This document shows, one piece after another, positions 1 to 37,324 of a stretch of 37,442 nt of DNA. Position 1 is the stretch's first letter. Each line of letters starts with the position of its first letter. The position numbers and the translations under genes were made by a program. The notes beneath the pieces are model-generated. The model was given only the letters and a program-made list of their open reading frames with translations, searched no databases and had not been told where the DNA came from. This DNA is from Desulfobacteraceae bacterium. GTDB taxonomy: Bacteria > Desulfobacterota > Desulfobacteria > Desulfobacterales > JAABSP01. The stretch lies in contig JAABSP010000049.1 in assembly GCA_011390345.1 (NCBI GenBank), forward strand, positions 1 through 37,442, written 5' to 3'.

Positions 1-11
1 TCTTCCGATCT
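1..11. other. Probable Illumina adapter remnant at the contig end
   Basis: The first 11 bases, TCTTCCGATCT, equal the 3' end of the standard Illumina TruSeq adapter (reverse complement AGATCGGAAGA). They sit exactly at the window edge and run in frame into the metV reading frame, giving a false tail at its last visible codons. Genomic DNA most likely starts at base 12. A chance match is possible but unlikely at precisely this position. Confidence 0.8.
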
Positions 12-609
12 GAAAGAGCTTCTCATAATCTTCGAGCCTGCCCAGGGCCTTGAGCCGGTCCACGATCAACTGCCATGCGCAGTCAACATCCTTGCTGATC
101 TCGCACTTCCCCTCCGTAGAGCCGCCGCAGGGGCCGTTGAGGACCCGCTTGGCACACCGGGTTACGGGGCAGACCGCGCCCGTGAAAGCCAGCACGCACT
201 CGCCGCACCCCTGACACCGCTCCACCCAGAGGCCCCGCTCTTCGGTGGCGCCCATGAAGCAGGTGTTGACGCCGGGATAGACCGGCATGTTCGGGTACTC
301 TTCAGCCATGAACTGGATCCCCACGCCGCAGGCGATGGAGACGACCCCGTCATACTCGCGGACGGTGCCGGCGATCTCCTGAAGGTACTCGTGGTCGCAC
401 TGCCGTTCCAGGGTCACTTCGTCGATGCGGACATCTTCTCCCTTGTTCTTGAAGTACATCCGAAGGGCCGACGCGAGGATTCCCACCTCTTTCTTCCCTC
501 CCGCTTCACAGACCGTGACGCACTCGTTGCAGCCGGCCACGAGGATGCTCTTCTTGTCCTTTACGTATTCGATGATCTCTTCGATCGGTTTTTTATCGGC
601 AACAATCAT
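1..609 (-). CDS. metV: MetV-like zinc/iron-sulfur subunit of methylene-tetrahydrofolate reductase (3' end missing)
   Basis: Minus-strand frame of 203 codons open to the window edge; the last few codons are adapter, so about 199 are real. MetV is the small Cys-rich partner of MetF in the methyl branch of the acetyl-CoA pathway. Visible features are an N-terminal CNEC motif in AGCNECVTVCEAGG, a central half with ACGVG and PGVNTCF, and a Cys cluster near the C-terminus (CQGCGEC, then CPVTRCAK and GPCGGS). The MetV family is about 200-220 residues, so little is missing. The ATG at 609 is preceded by AGAGG nine bases upstream. It lies 100 bp behind mvhD and hdrA, the arrangement expected for the cytosolic MetFV-Hdr-MvhD complex known from Moorella. 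metF should follow off the left edge (inference). Confidence 0.85.
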   Translation of the reverse strand, partial: MIVADKKPIEEIIEYVKDKKSILVAGCNECVTVCEAGGKKEVGILASALRMYFKNKGEDVRIDEVTLERQCDHEYLQEIAGTVREYDGVVSIACGVGIQFMAEEYPNMPVYPGVNTCFMGATEERGLWVERCQGCGECVLAFTGAVCPVTRCAKRVLNGPCGGSTEGKCEISKDVDCAWQLIVDRLKALGRLEDYEKLFQIGR

Positions 610-709: not shown

Positions 710-1138
710 TCATGCCGCTTTCTCTTTGGCGAGCTTCAGGGGGTTTGGCCCCAGCTCCTTGATCTTCTGAAAGAACTCCTCGGCATACTTGACGAATGTC
801 GGGGCCTCGGCCGAGGAGAGATTGTACATCTGCGCCCGCTCTCCGCCGATGCCGATGGTGTCCAGGAGCTTCTGGACCTGCTCCACCCGCTTGCGGGCAC
901 GGAGGTTGCCGCTGTTGAAATGGCAGTCCCCCTCCATGCAGCCAATAGCGCAGACGCCGTCCGCGCCCTTCTCAAAGGCGCGCATGAAGTGGATAACGTC
1001 CACCTTTCCGGTGCAGGGGACCCGGATGATCTTGATGTTGCTCGGATACTCCAGTCGCATGGAACCTGCCAGGTCCGCGGCCGAGTACCCTCAATAATTG
1101 CAACAAAAAGCGATGATGATCGGTTCGAATTCCGCCAT
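710..1138 (-). CDS. mvhD: MvhD, electron-transfer [2Fe-2S] subunit, selenoprotein
   Basis: The delta subunit passes electrons between HdrA and a hydrogenase or oxidoreductase partner. The frame is 142 residues if the in-frame UGA at 1093-1091 (codon 16) is read as selenocysteine. The context FCCNYU-GYSAADLAG matches the conserved family N-terminus FxCNWC-xYxGADLAG, so UGA stands exactly where family members have a metal-ligand Cys. The downstream part (RLEYPSNIKIIRVPC, CAIGCMEGDCH) is typical MvhD. A conventional start at codon 27 would remove the first cluster ligands and is rejected. The ATG at 1138 follows AAAGGG nine bases upstream. A hairpin fits a bacterial SECIS directly after the UGA. 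Selenocysteine in this family is known in methanogens and anaerobic bacteria; the reading here is inferred from sequence. Confidence 0.9.
1061..1076 (-). promoter_or_regulatory. Candidate bacterial SECIS hairpin in mvhD
   Basis: On the mRNA strand GGACCUGGCAGGUUCC folds as GG-ACCU-(GGC)-AGGU-U-CC with a bulged U; outer CGC/GCG pairing can extend it. The short loop begins with G about 20 nt after the UGA. Position, bulge and loop G agree with the known spacing of bacterial SelB-binding elements. Fold judged by eye. Confidence 0.6.
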
Positions 1139-1218: not shown

Positions 1219-4200
1219 TTATAATACACCCTCTAAGAGGGAATCGATCTTGCACATGAGCTGCTCATCCTCGTACCAGTTCAGCTCGATGGCCTTGGCC
1301 GGGCACTCGGCCGCGCAGACCCCGCATCCCTGACAGAGGGCCGGATCGATCTCCGAGACCCCCTCCTCGTTGATCCGCGGCACCCCGTAGGGGCAGGAAC
1401 GGACGCAGACGAGACAGGATGCGCACTTGGGCTGATCCACATAGGCCGTGACCGCAGAGAGGGTCAGGTGCGGCTGGGAGAGAAAGGTCACAGCTCTCGA
1501 TGCCGCGGCCTGGGCCTGGGGAATCGATTCCGAGATCAGCTTGGGCGCATGGGCCGTGCCGCATAGGAAGACGCCCTCAGTTCCCATGTCCACGGGCCGC
1601 AGTTTGACGTGGGCCTCGTTGAAGAAGCCCTCGCTGCTGCGGGCCAGCTTCATGATGGTGGCCAGCTCCTGGGTCTCGGCCGGCCGCACACCTGCGCTTA
1701 AAGCCAGCACATCGGTGCTTACCGTCAGGTTCTGGCGGAGCACATGGTCGAAGAAGGTGACTTCGATCTCATCTCCGTTCTTCTCCACCACCGGCGGGTT
1801 GTCCGGGGTGAACCGGAAGAAGAGTACCCCTTGGCGCCGGGCCTCGGTGTAGTAATCCTCCAGCAGGCCGTAGGTCCGGATATCCCGGTAGAGGATGAAG
1901 ACCTGCGCGTCCGGGTTGACCTTCTTGACGGCCAGGGCATTCTTGACCGCATTCTGGCAGCAGACCCGGGAGCAGTTGGGAAACTCCTCGTTTCTCGATC
2001 CCACGCACTGGATCATAACCATCTGCTCGGCCTTCTTGATCTTTTCGGAATCGGCATCCAGCGCCTCTCCCAGTTCGAGCTGGGTCATGACCCTGTCATC
2101 CTCGCCGTAGAGGAACTCTTTGGGCTTGTACTCCTGCGCGCCCGTGGCGATGATGGCCACACCGTGGTCGATCTTCTGCCGCTCCATATTGTCGCCGACA
2201 ATCACCTCGGTGGTGAAGTTGCCTTTGAAGCCGGAGAAGTTGACCACCACGGCCTGGGTTTTGACCTCGATCTTGGGATGGTCCGTTACCCTGCCGACCA
2301 GCTCCTTGACATAGGGCCGGATCTTTGCGCCCTCGATGGTCTTGGTGAGCCGGTTGCCGAGGCCCCCGAGCTGCGCATCTTTCTCCAGAAGCACCACTTC
2401 ATACCCCTGCTCGGCCAGCCCCAGAGCCGCATTCATGCCGGAGATCCCGCCGCCGATCACCAGGCCCCGGGATGTGACCGGAATCTGCTTTTCATGCAGA
2501 GGCGAAAGGGTTCCGGCCCGGGCAATCGCCATCCGGACCAGATCCTTGGCCTTGGCTGTGGCCGCGGCCGGGTCCGCATGGCACCAGGAGTCCTGGTTCC
2601 GGATATTGGCCATCTCGAAGAGATACTTGTTCAGGCCCGTGGCCTGCAGGGTATCCATGAAGATCGGCTCATGGGTCTTGGGGGTACAGGCCGCGACCAC
2701 CACCCGGTTCAGCTTCTCATCTTTGATGATCTGCTTCATGGAATCCTGCGCGTCCTGAGAGCAGGTGAAGAGGCTCTGGGTCACATAGGTCACATTGGGC
2801 AGGGTCTTGACATACTCCTCCAGATCGTCCTCGTCCACCACGCCTGCAATGTTGACGCCGCAGTTGCAGAGGAAGACGCCGATGCGCGGGTCCTGACCCT
2901 CCACGTCGATCTCTTCAGGCACCTCCACGCTCTTGGTCTGCGTATTTCTCGATTCATTCAGCTTCGCGCCGGCAAGGCAGGCGGCCGCACTCGCATCCAC
3001 CACCGAGGTGGGGATGTCTTTTGGCCCCTTGAAGATCCCGCAGGCGTAGACGCCCTGCCGGTTGGTCTCCACCGGTGCAAAGGGCTCGCTCTTCGCGAAC
3101 CGGTCCTTGTTCACCTCGATGCCGAGGCGGCCCGCCAGCTCCAGGGTGGAGTCGGGAACCTGGAGGCCCACGGAGAGGACCACCATATCGAAGATCTCCT
3201 CCTGCATCTCGCCGGCCTCGTCCGCGTACTTGATCAGGAGCTGATCCGATTCGGTCTGCTCGTAGACCGTATGGATTCGGGCCCGGACAAAGTTGATGCC
3301 CTGATTCTTGGCCCGATCATAATACAGCTCATAGTCTTTTCCAAAGGTCCGGATGTCCATGTTGAAGATGGTGCAGTCCAGACCGTTGTGAGCGTGCTCC
3401 TTTGCGATCATGGCCTCTTTGAGCGCGTACATGCAGCAGACCGAAGAGCAGTAGGAGTTGCCGCACTTGTTGGTATCTCTCGATCCCACGCACTGGAGCC
3501 AGGCGATCTTTTTGGGCTCGGTCTCTCTGTCCGAAAGCTTCACCACATGGCCCATGGTGGGGCCCGAGGCCGACAGGAGCCGCTCGAACTCGAGGCTCGT
3601 CACCACGTTCGGGTTGTCCTTGTAGTGGTAGAACTCGTTCAAGACATACGGGTCGAAGACCTCGTTGCCGGGGCAGAGGACAACAGATCCGATCTCGATC
3701 TCCCGGCTCTGGGGCACCATCTCGTGGTTGATCGCCTCCGCGAGGCAGGCATCCACGCACTGGTAGCACTCGCAGCAGTACCCGCAGTTGATGCAACGGT
3801 CCGCCTCGGCCATACCGATTTCGGGGGTGAATCCCAGCTCCACCTCGTTGAAGTTGCCGACTCTCTGATCGGCCGGAAGCTCCCGCACTTTGGCCCTGGC
3901 CTGGGGGGAGATCCCTTCGGGGACGGGCCGGTACATGGGATCATCCACTGTGGTCGGCTCACGGCCTTCGGCCATGTCCCGTCCGTCGCAGTAGCGCAGG
4001 ATCGACTCGGCCGCCTCCTGGCCCGCTGCGATCGCGCCGATCGCGACCCAGGGGCCGGTCTGGAGATCGCCGCCGGCAAAGACACCTTCCCGTCCCGTGA
4101 CATAGGTGACGGGATCGACCTCAACAGTTCCCCACCGGGTGAAGGCGAGGCCCTCGATGTTCTCCAGCGGGGAGATGTCGGGCCGCTGCCCGATGGCCGG

Positions 4201-5658
4201 GATGAGCTGGTCGATCTCGATGTCGAACTCCGAGCCCGGCTTGGGCACGGGCCGGCGCCGGCCCGAGGAATCAGGCTCGCCCAGCTCCATCTCGATGCAG
4301 CGCAGGCCCGTCACCTGGCCGTCCTCGGTGATGACCTCCTGGGGCGCGGTCAGATAGGTGATCTTGACGTCCTCATGCTCGGCCGCCAGGATCTCCTCCT
4401 CCCATGCCGGCATTTCCGCGCGGGTTCTGCGGTAGATGATGGTCACCTCTTCCGCACCCAGACGCACCGATGCCCGGGCCACGTCGATCGCGACGTTTCC
4501 GCCGCCGATGATCGCGACCTTTTTGCCCACTTCGGCCTTGCCTTCGAGGTTGACTTCTCTTAAGAAATCGACACCCTGGCGCACGCCGTTGGCCCTCTCG
4601 CCCGGGATGCCGAGACCAAAGCCGATGTGTGCCCCGGCCGCGAGATAGACGGCCTTGAAGCCCTCTTTCTCCAGCAGGCCTTCCACGGTCAGATCGCCCC
4701 CGATGGGGGTGCTGGTCTTGATCGTAACGCCGAGGTTGGTTATGATTTCGATCTCCTGATCCAGAATATCCTCGGGGAGCCGGTGGTTGGGGATGCCGAC
4801 GCGGAGCATGCCGCCGGCCTTGGGCAGGGACTCGTAGATGGTCGATTTGATCCCCTGTCTGGCCAGATGGAAGGCCGCGGAGAGCCCAGCCGGGCCCGAT
4901 CCGACGATGGCCACCCGCTCGGGCCGCTCCGGCTCACACTTGATCTCGATCTCCCGCGGGTCGAACTGGTCCGCCGCAAGGCGTTTGAGATCCCGGATGG
5001 AGATGGGCTCATCCAGATCCGCGCGGCGGCAGGCATCCTCGCAGGCATGGGGGCAGATTCTGCCGAGAACGCCCGGCAGGGGGAGGTTCTCCATGATGAT
5101 CTCCAGGGCCCTTTTGTAATTGCCCTGTTTGACCATCTGGACATACCCCTGGACGTTCAGGCCCGCGGGGCAGGCCAGGCGGCAGGGGGCCTTGTCGGCC
5201 TTCTGGATCGAATATGCCCCGGGAATGGCCTGGGGATACTGCTTGTACGCGGCCTGCTTGTCCGAAAGGTTCTTGTCATATTCATTTGGAAGGTTGACGG
5301 GGCAGACCTTCGCGCACTCCCCGCAGCTTGTGCATTTGGAAAGATCGATATAGCGGGGATACTCCTGTACCCGGGCATTGAAATTGCCCGGTTCGCCATT
5401 GAGATTCAACAGCTCCGAATTGGTAATCAGCTCGATGTTCATGTGCCGGCCGACCTCGACCAGCTTGGGTGAGATGACTCACATCGCACAGTCATTGGTG
5501 GGAAAGGTCTTGTCCAACTGCGACATCAGGCCGCCGATGGCCATGGTCCTCTCCACCAGATAGACATAATATCCGGAATTTGCAAGATCGAGTGCCGACT
5601 GCATTCCTGCGATGCCGGCGCCGACTACCATTACGGATCCGATGGGTTTTTCACTCAT
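1219..5658 (-). CDS. hdrA: HdrA-type flavin/iron-sulfur oxidoreductase, tandem fusion with internal GltD-like module, selenoprotein
   Basis: Encodes 1479 residues if the UGA at 5481-5479 (codon 60) is selenocysteine. HdrA carries the FAD at which electron bifurcation or confurcation occurs. Domains: FAD site VGAGIAG (about 12-18); [10 protein letters not shown] (51-60), where the last residue is Cys or Sec in known HdrA; ferredoxin Cys from 109; a GltD-like NAD(P)H/FAD module (about 157-560; GSGPAG near 253, GGGNVA near 385); a second Cys cluster from 622; HdrA core with CVGSRD and CSSVCC (723-742); a second HdrA unit from about 924 (FAD GGGISG near 1069); and two C-terminal [4Fe-4S] motifs (1412 and 1442). 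The ATG at 5658 has AAGGAG six bases upstream. A TTG 24 codons earlier and an ATG after the UGA were rejected. The inserted module suggests NAD(P)H is a partner. Physiological direction is not visible. Confidence 0.92.
5449..5464 (-). promoter_or_regulatory. Candidate bacterial SECIS hairpin in hdrA
   Basis: Fourteen bases after the UGA, GCUGGUCGAGGUCGGC can pair into a 6-bp stem (three G-U wobbles) with a CGAG loop, placing a loop G about 21 nt from the UGA. This is weaker than the mvhD hairpin but at the same distance. Folded by eye only. Confidence 0.4.
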
Positions 5659-5982
5659 TCGATACTCCTTATGTTGATTGCCATTATTGATGGTAAACGA
5701 TGATTCTCCTTGAAAATCGATTTGCGGCAATGGTATGCTGTCGCTGTTCGTCCTTTTTCGAAGCAGCGTTCGGTTCGTCTGTGGAAGCGGTATTTTTTCG
5801 AATCATTGCGGATGGATTACCGTTTTCGTCGAGTCGGAGAAATCCAAAGAAAAGTCAACATACTCAAATAACTCCCTTTCGTCAAGGGGAAAACTGCAAA
5901 AAAATGGTTTCGAAATGAGACAGCTCCCGTGATGCCGATACAAAACCGGTATTAAAGAGAATTCGAAACAAAGGAGGCGGTT
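5659..5982. other. Divergent intergenic region between hdrA and the histidine kinase
   Basis: This 324-bp stretch must hold the promoters of the hdrA operon (minus) and the kinase operon (plus). No convincing -35/-10 or -24/-12 pair was seen on either strand. The hexamer TTCGAA occurs four times (5757, 5797, 5909, 5962), twice preceded by a T run, which is more than expected and may mark a regulator site. Small open frames here have no support. Confidence 0.5.
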
Positions 5983-9885: not shown

Positions 9886-10824
9886 CTATGTCTCATCTTC
9901 TCCCGCGGTATGTAGAAACATCCGGGAGAGCCGGGCCCACCCGAGCTGCGGCAGACTTCCGTAGATGTCATACCCCAAAAATCCGCCGTCCGCGGCCAAC
10001 GGCGCAACCTCTTCGATGGCCCCGTAGAGCTGGTCGATCTCCGACTCCAGCACATCCCGGGCTTCGGTTCCGATCATCAGGTTCTTCAGATCCTTCCGCA
10101 GATTCTCGGCATGAACCCGCATCACCCAGCCGTCGGAATAAGGGGCTTTGTTGGCAAGACCGCCCGTCTCCCGGAGCGCGGGATTGATATCGGTCACCAC
10201 GCCGCTGACCGGAGAGAGCAGTGCGGCTCGCTTCTCCCCGCGGCGCAGAAGGATATGGGGCTGGTCCTGTCGGATCGGCTTCCCCATGAGCGGCGCCTCG
10301 ATTGCGTCGGGAGGCCCCAGCAACCGCAGGGCAAAATCATCGATACCGACCCGGACCGTTCCGCCCTCCTCCATCTTCAGCCATGTATGTCCCCGGTGAA
10401 AATAGTAGCCCTGGGGAATTTTAAATCCCTCAATATCCAGCACATCCACGGGCCGAACCACCGTATGCACCGCATACTGATCCTTAAAGTACTGGTCAAA
10501 ATCGCAGTCCCGGCAGCGGTAGCTCTGGGTGCAGGCCCTGAAGTCGATCCGGCCCTTCATGTGGTGGATGCAGGGGCGCTGCCAGGCCGGAAGCTTGCGC
10601 ATCCGCTCCTTCCAGAAGAGGATCGCGCCCCGGTTTCCTTCGGGAACCCTTCCTACCAACCGCGTGTTGCGGTTCTCTCCGGCCGTCTTCCGCATCACCC
10701 GGTCGAACCGGCAGGCCGGGCATTCGTAGTCGATTCGGCATTCCTTCTTCCGAACCACCCCCGCCTGCATCCAGAGACAGGGGCTGAACCCTGTGAAACC
10801 ATTTATCTTTTGTTTTGCATCCAT
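9886..10824 (-). CDS. Cys-rich protein with glycine-cleavage-H-like domain, copy 2
   Basis: 312 residues. The N-terminal half contains two related Cys motifs, CLWMQAG...CRIDYECPACRFD (16-41) and C...CTQSYRCRDCDFD, which could bind zinc or an iron-sulfur cluster. The C-terminal half has a GcvH/lipoyl-like hammerhead: GHTWLKMEEGGTVRVGIDDF and LLSPVSGVVTDIN. In true H-proteins the lipoylated Lys lies eight residues before the Pro of SPVSG; here that residue is Glu, with Lys one place off, so lipoylation is doubtful. The ATG at 10824 is preceded by GGAG six bases upstream; a longer frame to 11010 overlaps the neighbouring gene and is rejected. It ends in PLAADGG...DIYGSLPQLGW, shared with its tandem paralogue. 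Function unknown; not part of a glycine cleavage operon. Confidence 0.8.
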   Translation of the reverse strand: MDAKQKINGFTGFSPCLWMQAGVVRKKECRIDYECPACRFDRVMRKTAGENRNTRLVGRVPEGNRGAILFWKERMRKLPAWQRPCIHHMKGRIDFRACTQSYRCRDCDFDQYFKDQYAVHTVVRPVDVLDIEGFKIPQGYYFHRGHTWLKMEEGGTVRVGIDDFALRLLGPPDAIEAPLMGKPIRQDQPHILLRRGEKRAALLSPVSGVVTDINPALRETGGLANKAPYSDGWVMRVHAENLRKDLKNLMIGTEARDVLESEIDQLYGAIEEVAPLAADGGFLGYDIYGSLPQLGWARLSRMFLHTAGEDET

Positions 10825-10879
10825 TTTCGACTCCGTGAATGGAATGAGCAAATTCAATTGCGCACTCTCAAGCCCTGTT

Positions 10880-10894
10880 ACAAAGCTTTTGCCA
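10880..10894 (-). promoter_or_regulatory. Weak sigma-54-like site upstream of H-like copy 2
   Basis: TGGCAAAAGCTTTGT on the minus strand keeps the GG and TTG spacing of a -24/-12 promoter but has GT in place of the key GC at -12. It lies about 55 bp before the ATG at 10824. It may be a weak or decayed second promoter. Confidence 0.25.
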
Positions 10895-10915
10895 AAAATC
10901 CTGAAAATGGCAGGA

Positions 10916-10948
10916 CCTGCGGAAAGGGCTTTTTGATCTCTCCGCAGG
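10916..10948 (-). terminator. Stem-loop between the two H-like genes
   Basis: CCTGCGGA (10916-10923) and TCCGCAGG (10941-10948) form an 8-bp perfect stem with a 17-nt loop, just after the stop of copy 1. There is no U tract after the minus-strand 3' arm, so it may be an attenuator or processing site rather than a full terminator. Confidence 0.4.
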
Positions 10949-10973
10949 CCCCGGTTCATCTTTATCCATTGAA

Positions 10974-11966
10974 TCAGGTCTTGAGGAACCGCTTGGTCAG
11001 GTTCTGCCATCCGAGTTCGGGCAGGTTGCCGTAGATGTCGGTCTGCAGCAGACCGCCGTCTGCGGCCAGGGGTCCGGCCACCTCTTCGATCATCTGCTCG
11101 AGCTGCCCCACCTCCTCATTCATCCAGTTGATGCTCGTGCCTTCGCTCATCAGCGCCTTGACCGACTTTTTGATGTCGCCGGTGCGGATCAGAAAGAGCC
11201 ATCCGTCGCCGTAGGGATCTTCATTTGCAATCTGCGGATTCTCTCTCATCTTCTGGTTGACATCGGTGATCACACCACCCACCGGAGAGAGCACATCTGC
11301 CAGATTGTCCTTGCGCCGCATTCCCCAGCCCACGCGGTCCGGATCGAGTTCCTTGCCCATCAGCGGAAGATCGAGCGCGTCGGCCTTTCCAAAGACCTTC
11401 TGGGTGAAATCGTCGATGCCTATGCGGATGTATCCGCCGCTTTCGATCCGGGCCCAGGTGTGGCCATTGTGGAAGTGATAGTCCACGGGAACCGCAAAGC
11501 CCTTGACCTGATGGACCTCGAAGGGGACGCTCCGGGTATTCGGGGACAGGACATCTTCGAAATACTGGTCGAAGTCGCAGTGTCCGCACTCGTAGTTGTA
11601 TGCGCAGATCCGGTTTTCGATCCGGTTGGTGAGGCTGTGGCGGCAGACCCGGTGCATTGAGGGCCGCATCCGCAGCGAATCCTGCCAGGTCAACTGCTTT
11701 CCTTCGGCCGCCTTCCGCAGCATCCCGTGATCGTATTTGCAGGTGTTGCAGTCATAATAATTGTTGCAGTTCTTGAATCTGGCCAGCCCCGCCTGCATCC
11801 AGATGCAGGGGTTGTCAGTTTTGGCCTGCTGATCGGGCCGAACCATCCAGACCTGTCCGCCGAAGACCGCGCCGATCTCCTGCCCCTGCCCCAGATCCCG
11901 ATGCGCACCCTTGCGATAGGTCGAACCGAATCCTACATGGCTTTTCTTGTTCTCTTTGGTTGTCAT
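10974..11966 (-). CDS. Cys-rich protein with glycine-cleavage-H-like domain, copy 1
   Basis: 330 residues, tandem paralogue of the gene downstream, with the same layout: CIWMQAGLARFKNC plus YYDCNTCKYDHGM, then C...CAYNYECGHCDFDQYF, then the H-like domain (GHTWARIESGGYIRIGIDDF, VLSPVGGVITDVN) and the closing PLAADGG...DIYGNLPELGW. The position that carries lipoyl-lysine in GcvH is Asp here. The ATG at 11966 has AGGAGG with eight bases spacing; an ATG seven codons earlier contains the ribosome site and is rejected. About 80 bases upstream lies a strong sigma-54 promoter. No transmembrane segment or signal peptide is evident, so a soluble redox or metal-binding role in the cytoplasm is the cautious reading. 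Confidence 0.85.
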   Translation of the reverse strand: MTTKENKKSHVGFGSTYRKGAHRDLGQGQEIGAVFGGQVWMVRPDQQAKTDNPCIWMQAGLARFKNCNNYYDCNTCKYDHGMLRKAAEGKQLTWQDSLRMRPSMHRVCRHSLTNRIENRICAYNYECGHCDFDQYFEDVLSPNTRSVPFEVHQVKGFAVPVDYHFHNGHTWARIESGGYIRIGIDDFTQKVFGKADALDLPLMGKELDPDRVGWGMRRKDNLADVLSPVGGVITDVNQKMRENPQIANEDPYGDGWLFLIRTGDIKKSVKALMSEGTSINWMNEEVGQLEQMIEEVAGPLAADGGLLQTDIYGNLPELGWQNLTKRFLKT

Positions 11967-12046
11967 CTCTCTTTCCTCCTGTTTCATTTATCATTAAATT
12001 GAAAAGTTTTCACTCGTTTCTCATGCTTTGTTGCAGATTTATAAGA

Positions 12047-34739: not shown

Positions 34740-37324
34740 CAGGACTTCCGGTGGCCACCCCCATATTCGACGTTATGAAATGCGCCATCATCGAGATGGG
34801 TGTGGTGCCCGAAGCGGCGGCGGTTCAGGGTCAACTTCCACTCTCAGTTTTCGGCCGCTGCGCATATGTAAGCCCCGCTCGTTGATTGCACTGCTGAACT
34901 CCTTGAGCAAGGCCATCATCTCAGGATCCCGCTGGTTCCAGGAAAAGGTGATGATCTCAAAATTCGGAGTCATCCGTTGACGTGCCGGCAGGGTGGCCAT
35001 CCGCTCCAGGAAAGTCAATGCAGTCATTCCGGCGTTGCCCAGGTATTCGCGCAGAACATAGGAAACGAGGAAGACCAGCGCCACTTTCAGCAGATTGAAC
35101 AGGGAGTCGAGTTCCACGTCATGAGCAAAGATCTTTCTTCGTCCTTCCAGTTTCTCTTGCTTTTTTTCGTACCCGTCGAGCCGGTTTCGGGTACGATCCA
35201 ACTGGGCTCCTGTCTTGTCACAGCGGTCTCGATTCTTTGTCAGCCGCTCATTGGATTTGGCGATTTCAGTGCCAAGGCTGCGCTGCTCATCCGCCAGACT
35301 CTGCACAGAGGGCGTGACAGTACGGCCGGCTTCCAGACGGGCTTCCAGGTGACGATTCACCGTCTCCTGCCGCCGCACCCGGCGATTGAGCTGTTTTTTT
35401 TCTTCATGGACCTTCTGCTCCAGGTCTTTCAGTTTCGTCTCCTGCTGCGCAAACCGCAGGCGGGCAGCAGCGCTCTTGCGGGCCAATTCGTCGAGTTCGG
35501 TGACGACACTGATGTTGTCCACCAGTTGCTTGCCGTATCCATGAACCTCCTTGAACCCGGCGGCCTGGTTCACGGCCCGGAAATCGGCTTCCTGGTTCGG
35601 CCACCGGTCGAAGTAGAGATCCGCGACATCGGCCGCGTTCCAGTCATGGAGATCCAGAAGGGTGCTTCCCCCGAGGTATGTCACCTTTCCGGAGCTGCGC
35701 CGCTCGATTTCCACCACTCGCATCCGGAATTTCCCGTCCTTGACTTCCGGGTCGTTGAAATCGGCAATCCCCATGCGGACTCTGTCTCCGTTGCGATACG
35801 GGCGGTAGTTGCAGCGGTTGAAGATCCTCTTGTCCGCAACCGAGTCCTCCGGAATGCGACTTACCCATGCCCGGGGCGGATCCCCCTGCTCCAGCCCTTT
35901 GAGAAAGGAAATTGCAAACCCCTCTGCATCGATGACCATGATTCGGCCCACCGACGACGAGCCGCAGATATCATCGAGCCTTCCGATCGCCTCCGGAATC
36001 ACCTTGACCAGCGGGGTCCGGCCGCTGCAGGTCAACATCCAGAGCGGTGTCCCATAGCCGCTGTGAAAAGCCACCGTTTCCAGTCCCGGCATCGTACGGC
36101 CCACCATGCTCACGGGAGTGGACTGACTGAAGAGCCGGGTCCAGATCGGCTTGGTGGTCCCGTCAACAAAGATCACCGCGTCCCTGCGACCGTCTCCCCA
36201 CTGCATGGACTGGTAAAGGGTATGGCGGGCATGGACCTCCCAGAGAGTGGCGCTGACCCCGGCATACTTGAGTTCCCGGGTGAAGCGGTCCAGGGTGGCC
36301 GGCATGTAAGGATGGCCGCAGACCTCGTTGAGCAGTATGCCTGCCTGCGGCGTGCGCAGAGTGTCCCAGCCCCTTCCGCCGATCATGGGAGTGACCAGCA
36401 GGGCGATCAGTTTGCGCTCGATCACTTCCTGGCTGGCCCCCGCGATCTCGAAGCGATCGACATCCATTCCCAGGCGTTTTTCCGCAACAGAAGCAAAGCC
36501 GGGGCCGATGGGATCATCCGGCCCTTTGCGGAAGCGCTCGTTGTACGCCGGCAGAAACCGCCCGTCCGCATCCCGGCCGCTCTTGTCGATTTCCCGGACC
36601 GTCTCGGGCCTGGGCAGATTCTCGACATGTGCGGTAATCGCCTGGCTCAATTCGCCCAGGTAGCCGGTTTCAACAATGGCCGCCTCCAACAGTTTCAAGC
36701 CGCCGTATGCAAGCGGCTGTTCCTTTGGTTCCCGTTTTCTTCCCGAAACAGCACCCCGCGGGCGATTGAGTCCGTTCTCACGCAGCACCTTTTTGATTGT
36801 AGTAGGCCCCACTGTGACGCCGTGGTGCTGCTTCAGATGGGCGGCAATATCTTCTGTGGCAATGTCCGGATCTGCCCGCCGTAGCGTACAGATAGCGATA
36901 CGAACCTCCGGATCGACCGGCAGGCGAGGGCCTGTCCGGGTATCGATGAGGCCGTCGAAACCATGCTCCTGGTAACGCTTACGCCAGCGAAGGATGGTTG
37001 TGCGATCCATCTCGGCATTCAACTGCCTTGCGGCCTCGCGTTCAGTTAGGTCTTCGGATTTGCTGTCCAATGCCCGGATCAGTTCGAGCCGACGCCTCGC
37101 CTGGGCCAGCCGCTTTTCACGAACAGAAGGAGACAATCGCTGCCAGATGCCGGCAACTTTATCATTCTTCGGCTCATAGCTCATTTTCTCTTGGGACATC
37201 GGGGCACCGCCGTTGGCTGAGGTTTGGTTCAGAAAATACGACGACTACAGACTGACAGAGCTATCTATAAGGGAATCAGTGGGTAATGTCAACAACCTTG
37301 TTGAAGAGAACCGGAAGTCCTGTC
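34738..37324 (-). mobile_element. Insertion sequence, about 2.6 kb, with 15-bp perfect terminal inverted repeats
   Basis: GACAGGACTTCCGGT (34738-34752) is repeated in inverse orientation as ACCGGAAGTCCTGTC (37310-37324), enclosing one large transposase gene. Comparison with block A suggests the first two bases may be host DNA, so the ends could be 34740 and 37322. Flanks give only TCAGA versus TCAGT as a possible imperfect 5-bp target duplication. I cannot assign the family with certainty. Confidence 0.85.
34788..37199 (-). CDS. Transposase of the insertion sequence
   Basis: 803 residues. The N-terminus holds two helix-turn-helix units (REAARQLNAEMDRTTILRWRKRYQEHG; HGVTVGPTTIKKVLRENGL). A DDE-type core is indicated by IFVDGTTKPIW, IMVIDAEGFA and FDRWPNQEADF, giving candidate D, D and E. 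A long basic-acidic coiled coil (about 590-690) and a hydrophobic stretch (LLKVALVFLVSYVL) follow near the C-terminus. It is longer than most IS transposases. The frame is intact and ends 50 bp inside the left terminal repeat, so the element may be active. The ATG at 37199 has only a poor ribosome site; the next ATG, five codons on, is an alternative. Confidence 0.88.
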   Translation of the reverse strand: MSQEKMSYEPKNDKVAGIWQRLSPSVREKRLAQARRRLELIRALDSKSEDLTEREAARQLNAEMDRTTILRWRKRYQEHGFDGLIDTRTGPRLPVDPEVRIAICTLRRADPDIATEDIAAHLKQHHGVTVGPTTIKKVLRENGLNRPRGAVSGRKREPKEQPLAYGGLKLLEAAIVETGYLGELSQAITAHVENLPRPETVREIDKSGRDADGRFLPAYNERFRKGPDDPIGPGFASVAEKRLGMDVDRFEIAGASQEVIERKLIALLVTPMIGGRGWDTLRTPQAGILLNEVCGHPYMPATLDRFTRELKYAGVSATLWEVHARHTLYQSMQWGDGRRDAVIFVDGTTKPIWTRLFSQSTPVSMVGRTMPGLETVAFHSGYGTPLWMLTCSGRTPLVKVIPEAIGRLDDICGSSSVGRIMVIDAEGFAISFLKGLEQGDPPRAWVSRIPEDSVADKRIFNRCNYRPYRNGDRVRMGIADFNDPEVKDGKFRMRVVEIERRSSGKVTYLGGSTLLDLHDWNAADVADLYFDRWPNQEADFRAVNQAAGFKEVHGYGKQLVDNISVVTELDELARKSAAARLRFAQQETKLKDLEQKVHEEKKQLNRRVRRQETVNRHLEARLEAGRTVTPSVQSLADEQRSLGTEIAKSNERLTKNRDRCDKTGAQLDRTRNRLDGYEKKQEKLEGRRKIFAHDVELDSLFNLLKVALVFLVSYVLREYLGNAGMTALTFLERMATLPARQRMTPNFEIITFSWNQRDPEMMALLKEFSSAINERGLHMRSGRKLRVEVDPEPPPLRAPHPSR

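What the first reader, a model, noticed from the sequence alone, without database searches (positions are those of the whole stretch)
1219..5658. HdrA is a second selenoprotein: UGA at codon 60 joins two apparent reading frames
Seen: an 83-codon frame and a 1407-codon frame are collinear in one frame and separated by a single UGA in [16 protein letters not shown], where HdrA homologues have Cys or Sec. The start at 5658 has a strong ribosome site. Standard annotation would report a truncated HdrA without the N-terminal FAD motif.
Basis: partly seen in the sequence, partly recalled or inferred. Interest (0 to 1): 0.75.

Follow-up and report, generated by a model that had tools for sequence, protein, structure and literature searches.

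The report
Selenoprotein HdrL beside methylene-THF reductase

Summary
Confirmed, and of a known kind. Window 1219-5658 (-) is one 1479-residue frame with a single in-frame UGA at codon 60 (5481-5479). The solved HdrA 5odc has Cys there. In loci fetched from 30 genomes (this one included) a motif search finds UGA in 29 copies and Cys in 7; in 80 named loci UGA in 34 and Cys in 52. A hairpin follows whose 18 nucleotides (six codons) are identical in 29 of 29 and 30 of 34 UGA copies and in 0 of 7 and 0 of 52 Cys copies: a bacterial SECIS element. The genome has selA, selB and a selD with its own UGA. selC was not found; an assembly gap is the likeliest reason. The protein is the HdrL type (HdrA with an inserted GltD-like NAD(P)H domain), printed as a selenoprotein for Desulfobacterium autotrophicum in 2009. 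Selenoprotein MvhD and MetV follow; MetF lies on another contig, and next to MetV in relatives. It most likely couples NAD(P)H, ferredoxin and methylene-THF/methyl-THF by flavin-based electron bifurcation or confurcation. Sec insertion and the reaction are inferred, not measured.

The parts
1219..5658 (-). hdrL (HdrA with inserted GltD-like domain), 1479 residues, Sec at 60
5479..5481 (-). in-frame UGA, codon 60, read as selenocysteine (last position of a CxxU motif with Cys57)
5445..5464 (-). apical hairpin of the SECIS element, 8 base pairs, loop AGGU (5453-5456)
5665..5670 (-). AAGGAG ribosome site before the ATG at 5658
710..1138 (-). mvhD, 142 residues, second selenoprotein, in-frame UGA at 1093-1091 (CCNYU); its own stop codon is also TGA
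   Evidence: the VhuD match is below that model's cut-off (178 of 215 bits)
1..609 (-). metV-like gene, 3' end cut by the contig end
   Evidence: the name rests on recall and on its place before MetF in relatives; no NCBIfam match at E 0.001

Best explanation
The gene encodes a selenocysteine-containing HdrL. The ribosome decodes UGA-60 as Sec with SelB bound to the hairpin 15-34 nt downstream. HdrL probably works with selenoprotein MvhD and with MetV/MetF as a methylene-tetrahydrofolate reductase complex: NAD(P)(H) is handled at the FAD of the GltD-like insert, and the FAD of the first TrxR-like half (Glu692, Lys747) bifurcates or confurcates electrons between ferredoxin and the MvhD-MetV-MetF branch. 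Sec60, in a CxxU motif of that same half, is proposed to serve as a redox group or Fe-S ligand. Shown: gene structure, conserved Cys/UGA column, frozen hairpin, selA/selB/selD, conserved gene order in many relatives. Inferred: actual Sec insertion, complex formation, direction and stoichiometry, role of Sec60.
For: One UGA only in 1480 codons. The UGA aligns with Cys of HdrA 5odc_A and 8rvv_A. UGA 29 and Cys 7 among motif hits in loci up to L061; UGA 34 and Cys 52 in 79 of 80 named loci. Codons +6 to +11 after the UGA are the same in 29 of 29 Sec copies, while most neighbouring codons vary synonymously; the exact 18-mer is in 30 of 34 Sec and 0 of 52 Cys copies; the 4 others have another hairpin. 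selB 360 bits, selA 600 bits, selD 386 bits with a UGA in GAGUASK. Sec MvhD, MetV and MetF follow in 10 of the 14 downstream regions of Sec HdrL genes that I fetched for this. Glu692 and Lys747 are invariant in 23 aligned first halves; the second half has Gly for the Glu.
Against: No tRNA-Sec gene in the assembly: the one Rfam hit over the cut-off is a tRNA-Trp, and a relative's selC has no full match. In 4 of 14 regions the order Sec MvhD-MetV-MetF is not seen, and L057, another Sec HdrL, has a Cys MvhD without MetV; 10 of 34 named Sec copies precede a Cys-type MvhD without MetV in reach, so HdrL serves other partners too. No hdrB/hdrC lies beside the gene, unlike the Moorella cluster in print. 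The hairpin is not the minimum-energy fold of every copy (7 of 29 fold otherwise). The structure model is poor around Sec60 (pLDDT under 50 at 49-61), so the role of Sec is not shown.
Confidence: 0.75

Rival explanations
1. The UGA is a sequencing or assembly error of a TGC/TGT codon, or a pseudogene mutation.
For: The window comes from an assembly in 199 contigs, and Cys codons stand at this column in many homologues.
Against: 17 of the first 18 rows of the genome search, from many genomes, list one in-frame TGA, and the 18th two; the motif loci show it at this column, with an 18-nt downstream sequence that is frozen only in the TGA copies. The rest of the frame is intact.
Confidence: 0.02
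2. Translation stops at UGA and restarts at 5442, giving an N-terminally truncated HdrL as the real product.
For: Mechanical ORF calling gives exactly that 1407-residue ORF from ATG 5442.
Against: It would lose the first GxGxxG stretch (Gly13, 15, 18), invariant in 23 of 23 aligned proteins; residues 10-59 keep homology to HdrA of solved structures; it would leave the frozen hairpin unexplained.
Confidence: 0.02
3. HdrL is a selenoprotein but not part of a methylene-THF reductase complex; it serves another acceptor, such as sulfite reduction or DsrC.
For: HdrL1 of D. autotrophicum lies beside dsrABC, and many HdrL genes in the named set have no MetV in reach (contig ends limit this).
Against: In this clade Sec HdrL, Sec MvhD, MetV and MetF follow each other in 10 of 14 regions, and 12 of 12 named Sec copies with MetV in reach have a Sec MvhD.
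Confidence: 0.2

Closest known systems
HdrL1/HdrL3 of Desulfobacterium autotrophicum HRM2 (PMC2702500, passages read)
   Same: HdrA/glutamate-synthase fusion with an NADH site, selenocysteine-containing, followed by an mvhD gene (four mvhD genes of that genome are listed as Sec-containing)
   Different: HdrL1 and its mvhD are followed by dsrABC in that paper; here a metV-like gene follows
HdrA of the Moorella thermoacetica HdrCBA-MvhD-MetVF methylene-THF reductase (PMC9430772 and PMC5736913, passages read)
   Same: 1487-residue HdrA with a GltD domain interrupting an extra N-terminal TrxR-like half; MvhD and MetVF in the same cluster; one HdrA and one FrhD selenoprotein are listed for Moorella (PMC1794560), though the passages do not say that it is this HdrA
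   Different: Moorella has hdrB and hdrC in the cluster; none lies beside the gene here
Selenoprotein HdrA of archaea and Deltaproteobacteria (PMC1794560, PMC13188914, PMC5109826, passages read)
   Same: CxxU motif in HdrA, association with FrhD/MvhD; in Desulfococcus multivorans the UGA splits hdrA into two annotated pieces
   Different: no GltD insert is mentioned in the passages that I read

Membership tests
Bacterial selenoprotein | in-frame UGA aligned with Cys of homologues | tested here: met
Bacterial selenoprotein | SECIS hairpin immediately downstream of the UGA, conserved | tested here: met
Bacterial selenoprotein | selA, selB, selD in the genome | tested here: met
Bacterial selenoprotein | selC (tRNA-Sec) in the genome | tested here: inconclusive
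   not found in G000; present at 76.5 bits in two of three same-family genomes; the syntenic place seems to lie at a contig end
Bacterial selenoprotein | Sec in the protein by experiment | not testable with these tools
   no culture or proteome
HdrL (HdrA-GltD fusion) | HdrA domains plus inserted GltD-like FAD/NAD(P)H domain in one chain | tested here: met
   GltD-like matches from about 150 to about 560-658 between HdrA segments 10-153 and 626-835; further HdrA segments 922-1093 and 1330-1474
HdrL (HdrA-GltD fusion) | neighbouring mvhD | tested here: met
   710-1138 (-)
Electron-bifurcating HdrA | Glu356 and Lys409 of M. thermolithotrophicus HdrA | tested here: met
   Glu692 and Lys747, matched by my counting along the alignment; invariant; the Glu is Gly in the second half
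Moorella-type HdrCBA-MvhD-MetVF complex | hdrB and hdrC in the cluster | tested here: not met
   upstream of hdrL is a divergent histidine kinase gene, downstream mvhD and metV up to the contig end; hdrB/hdrC were not sought elsewhere in the genome, beyond metF on C60, or in relatives
Moorella-type HdrCBA-MvhD-MetVF complex | metV and metF next to mvhD | tested here: inconclusive
   metV follows mvhD in the window and is cut by the contig end; the one MTHFR gene found is on C60 behind a near-identical metV; 10 of 14 regions of relatives have MvhD, MetV and MetF together

The most novel reading that the evidence does not exclude
HdrL, MvhD, MetV and MetF form an NAD(P)H-linked, electron-bifurcating methylene-THF reductase of sulfate reducers that needs no HdrB/HdrC and carries selenocysteine in both of its electron-relay subunits.
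Probability: 0.4. Interest if true: 0.45.

Novelty: new member of a known kind. Interest (0 to 1): 0.2.

Why it matters
Correct reading restores the FAD-binding N-terminus of a large electron-transfer protein that mechanical ORF calling cuts off, and does the same for MvhD beside it. [quoted passage not shown] the electron carrier of MetVF-type methylene-THF reductases is an open point in print (PMC8760232, title and start of abstract in the listing; PMC9430772, passages). The finding itself repeats what is in print for related organisms.

Tried and rejected
The Rfam scan of the window at gathering scores gave no match. The tRNA-Sec hit was rejected: it is a tRNA-Trp; the seven other hits are Leu, Ser or Arg tRNAs. 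A search with a relative's selC gave only matches of 14-26 bases. An attempt to place Sec60 in a predicted structure gave low confidence at 49-61, so nothing is concluded from it; no fold search was made. In one search the MetF query was a wrong-frame reading; it was replaced. Pair covariation was not counted, because the hairpin's main 18 bases do not vary among the 29 copies. The confidence of the best explanation was 0.93 in my draft and is 0.75 now: the draft figure fitted the Sec reading alone (I put that at about 0.95) and clashed with the rival at 0.2 that denies the MetVF partnership; the recount also added L057, a Sec HdrL without MetV.

Full report
Observation. Window 5658-1219 (-) reads as 1479 residues with one step outside table 11, TGA at codon 60. 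By table 11 it falls into an 83-aa ORF (from TTG 5730; 59 codons from ATG 5658) and a 1407-aa ORF from ATG 5442. AAGGAG stands at 5670-5665, six bases before the ATG.

Sec or error. phmmer against solved structures aligns residue 60 with a Cys of HdrA 5odc_A (TNDCSIC; position 197 by my counting along the alignment) and of 8rvv_A. A search of 30 genomes, this one included, found relatives in 30 of 30. Of its first 18 rows, 17 list one in-frame TGA and one lists two; the second TGA of that one (L054) is most likely its own stop. Not all matches were fetched. By the motif PTN[DE]C..[UC] in loci up to L061, 36 copies were found: 29 UGA, 7 Cys. By my tally, 21 of the 29 and 5 of the 7 lie in frames that match HdrL from its N-terminal part; the other 8 and 2 lie in HdrA-type copies matched from about residue 620 on. 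In 80 named loci from the genome collection a slightly wider motif was found in 79 (none in L197), 86 copies: 34 UGA, 52 Cys. The two sets overlap (L124, L131 and L134 have the contig lengths of G024:C169, G022:C328 and G024:C341), so they are not summed.

SECIS. The strand after the UGA folds into an 8-pair hairpin with loop AGGU (z -2.33 for the whole 53-mer, 4 of 200 shuffles as good). In 7 of 29 UGA copies (L023, L024, L033, L034, L035, L053, L054) the minimum-energy fold of 45 nt is another one. The stronger evidence is at the codon level. Codons +6 to +11 (CTG GTC GAG GTC GGC CGG) are identical in 29 of 29 UGA copies, though each amino acid has two to six codons, and most codons on both sides vary. 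By the codon usage of stretches further down in these genes, one sequence would show the six codons with a probability of 0.0017. Shared descent makes the 29 non-independent, but the surrounding codons share that descent and vary. None of the 7 Cys copies has the 18-mer. In the named set the exact 18-mer is in 30 of 34 UGA and 0 of 52 Cys copies; one Cys copy, L169, differs from it in a single base and may be a SECIS remnant or chance. The 4 UGA exceptions are the second hdrA-type copies in L150-L153, which fold into a different hairpin with its loop at +28 in place of +23.

Machinery. selB (360 bits), selA (600 bits) and selD (386 bits) are present; selD itself has UGA in GAGUASK. selC was not found: the only Rfam hit over the cut-off, at C44, is a tRNA-Trp. 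Of three same-family relatives, G001 and G003 have selC at 76.5 bits and G002 (73% complete) shows none over the cut-off; 25 of 30 genomes have some hit over the cut-off there, but one search shows that such a hit can be another tRNA. ARAGORN confirms tRNA-SeC in the five loci that I gave it. In G003, selC lies between a gene with a cyclic-nucleotide-binding look and a signal-peptidase-like gene (both names recalled). In this genome the first has 16 matches; one of them, 68% identical, breaks off at the very end of contig C81 (base 5470 of 5471, query residues 5-203 of 369). The second (179 aa, itself incomplete) has no match in this genome, though the tool warns that an empty answer without a control shows nothing. 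An assembly gap is the simplest reading, not proved.

What the protein is. HdrA segments (10-153, 626-835, 922-1093, 1330-1474) surround a GltD/NfnL-like stretch from about residue 150 to 560-658. This is the HdrL architecture. The best HdrA model of NCBIfam stays below its cut-off (934 of 1100 bits), as a fusion may; the NAD(P)-binding subfamily model PRK12771 passes its own (554 of 516). Glu692 and Lys747, by my counting the counterparts of Glu356/Lys409 that two papers name as marks of bifurcating HdrA, are invariant in 23 aligned first halves. The second half has Gly for the Glu and lacks the Sec loop.

Surroundings. mvhD (710-1138) has its own UGA at 1093-1091; the fold after it is not better than shuffles by much (z -1.40), and its SECIS was not tested further. 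A metV-like gene (609 to the contig end) follows. The one MTHFR (MetF) match in the genome is on C60 behind a metV of 98.5% protein identity, so C147 and C60 are probably neighbours, or copies or strains were mixed: the overlap differs at 32 of 685 positions, 6 of them in the last 11 bases. I fetched 16 downstream regions of relatives. 14 follow Sec HdrL genes: 10 have Sec MvhD, MetV and MetF (in L103 MetV is more distant and lies after a gap), L110 and L114 have a Cys MvhD without MetV, L116 has a Cys MvhD, then a second, Sec one and part of a MetV, and L113 shows no MvhD in 2.9 kb. The 2 behind Cys HdrL genes have Cys MvhD, MetV and MetF. Five loci from earlier calls were searched in the same run: L055 (the same gene as L114), L057 (Sec HdrL, Cys MvhD, no MetV), L028 (Sec HdrL, Sec MvhD, then the contig end), L056 (Cys HdrL, Sec MvhD, MetV, MetF) and L058 (Cys HdrL, Cys MvhD, no MetV in the stretch). 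In the named set, 12 of 12 Sec copies with MetV in reach have Sec MvhD; of 22 Cys copies with MetV, 14 have Sec and 8 Cys MvhD; 22 of the 86 copies show no MvhD downstream, some because the contig or locus ends.

Known or new. HdrL1 and HdrL3 of D. autotrophicum are printed as selenocysteine-containing HdrA/glutamate-synthase fusions, each HdrL with a neighbouring mvhD (PMC2702500, passages). HdrA and FrhD are listed bacterial selenoprotein families since 2006 (PMC1794560, passages) and in a 2026 review with the motif CxxU (PMC13188914, passages). The Moorella HdrCBA-MvhD-MetVF enzyme has a GltD-bearing HdrA (PMC9430772, passages), and HdrABC next to metF is reported in syntrophic sulfate reducers (PMC10553843, passages). 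The finding is thus a new member of a known kind. The exact combination of Sec HdrL, Sec MvhD and MetVF without HdrBC I did not meet in five searches, of which I saw listings, plus passages of a few papers; that is weak evidence of absence.

Noticed in passing
window 1-11: The contig begins with TCTTCCGATCT, the reverse complement of AGATCGGAAGA, which I recall as the start of a common Illumina adapter; the near-identical contig C60 has other bases there. The last bases of the cut metV are likely an adapter remnant.
   Followed up: partly
window 9886-11010 (-) and 10974-11987 (-): Two adjacent, overlapping frames of 374 and 337 aa, each with a glycine-cleavage H-like domain behind an N-terminal part with several Cys.
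   Followed up: no
L150, L151, L152, L153: Two hdrA-type copies in each locus, both with UGA at the same column but with two different hairpins at different distances from the UGA.
   Followed up: partly
L169, HdrA-type copy with Cys: Its Cys codon is followed by a sequence one base away from the 18-mer of the Sec genes, perhaps a remnant of a SECIS after a Sec-to-Cys change.
   Followed up: no
L196 and L199 (records titled Euryarchaeota): Two motif copies per locus, with Cys at the column.
   Followed up: no
window 34788-37199 (-): 803-aa frame with helix-turn-helix/transposase-like matches near the other contig end.
   Followed up: no
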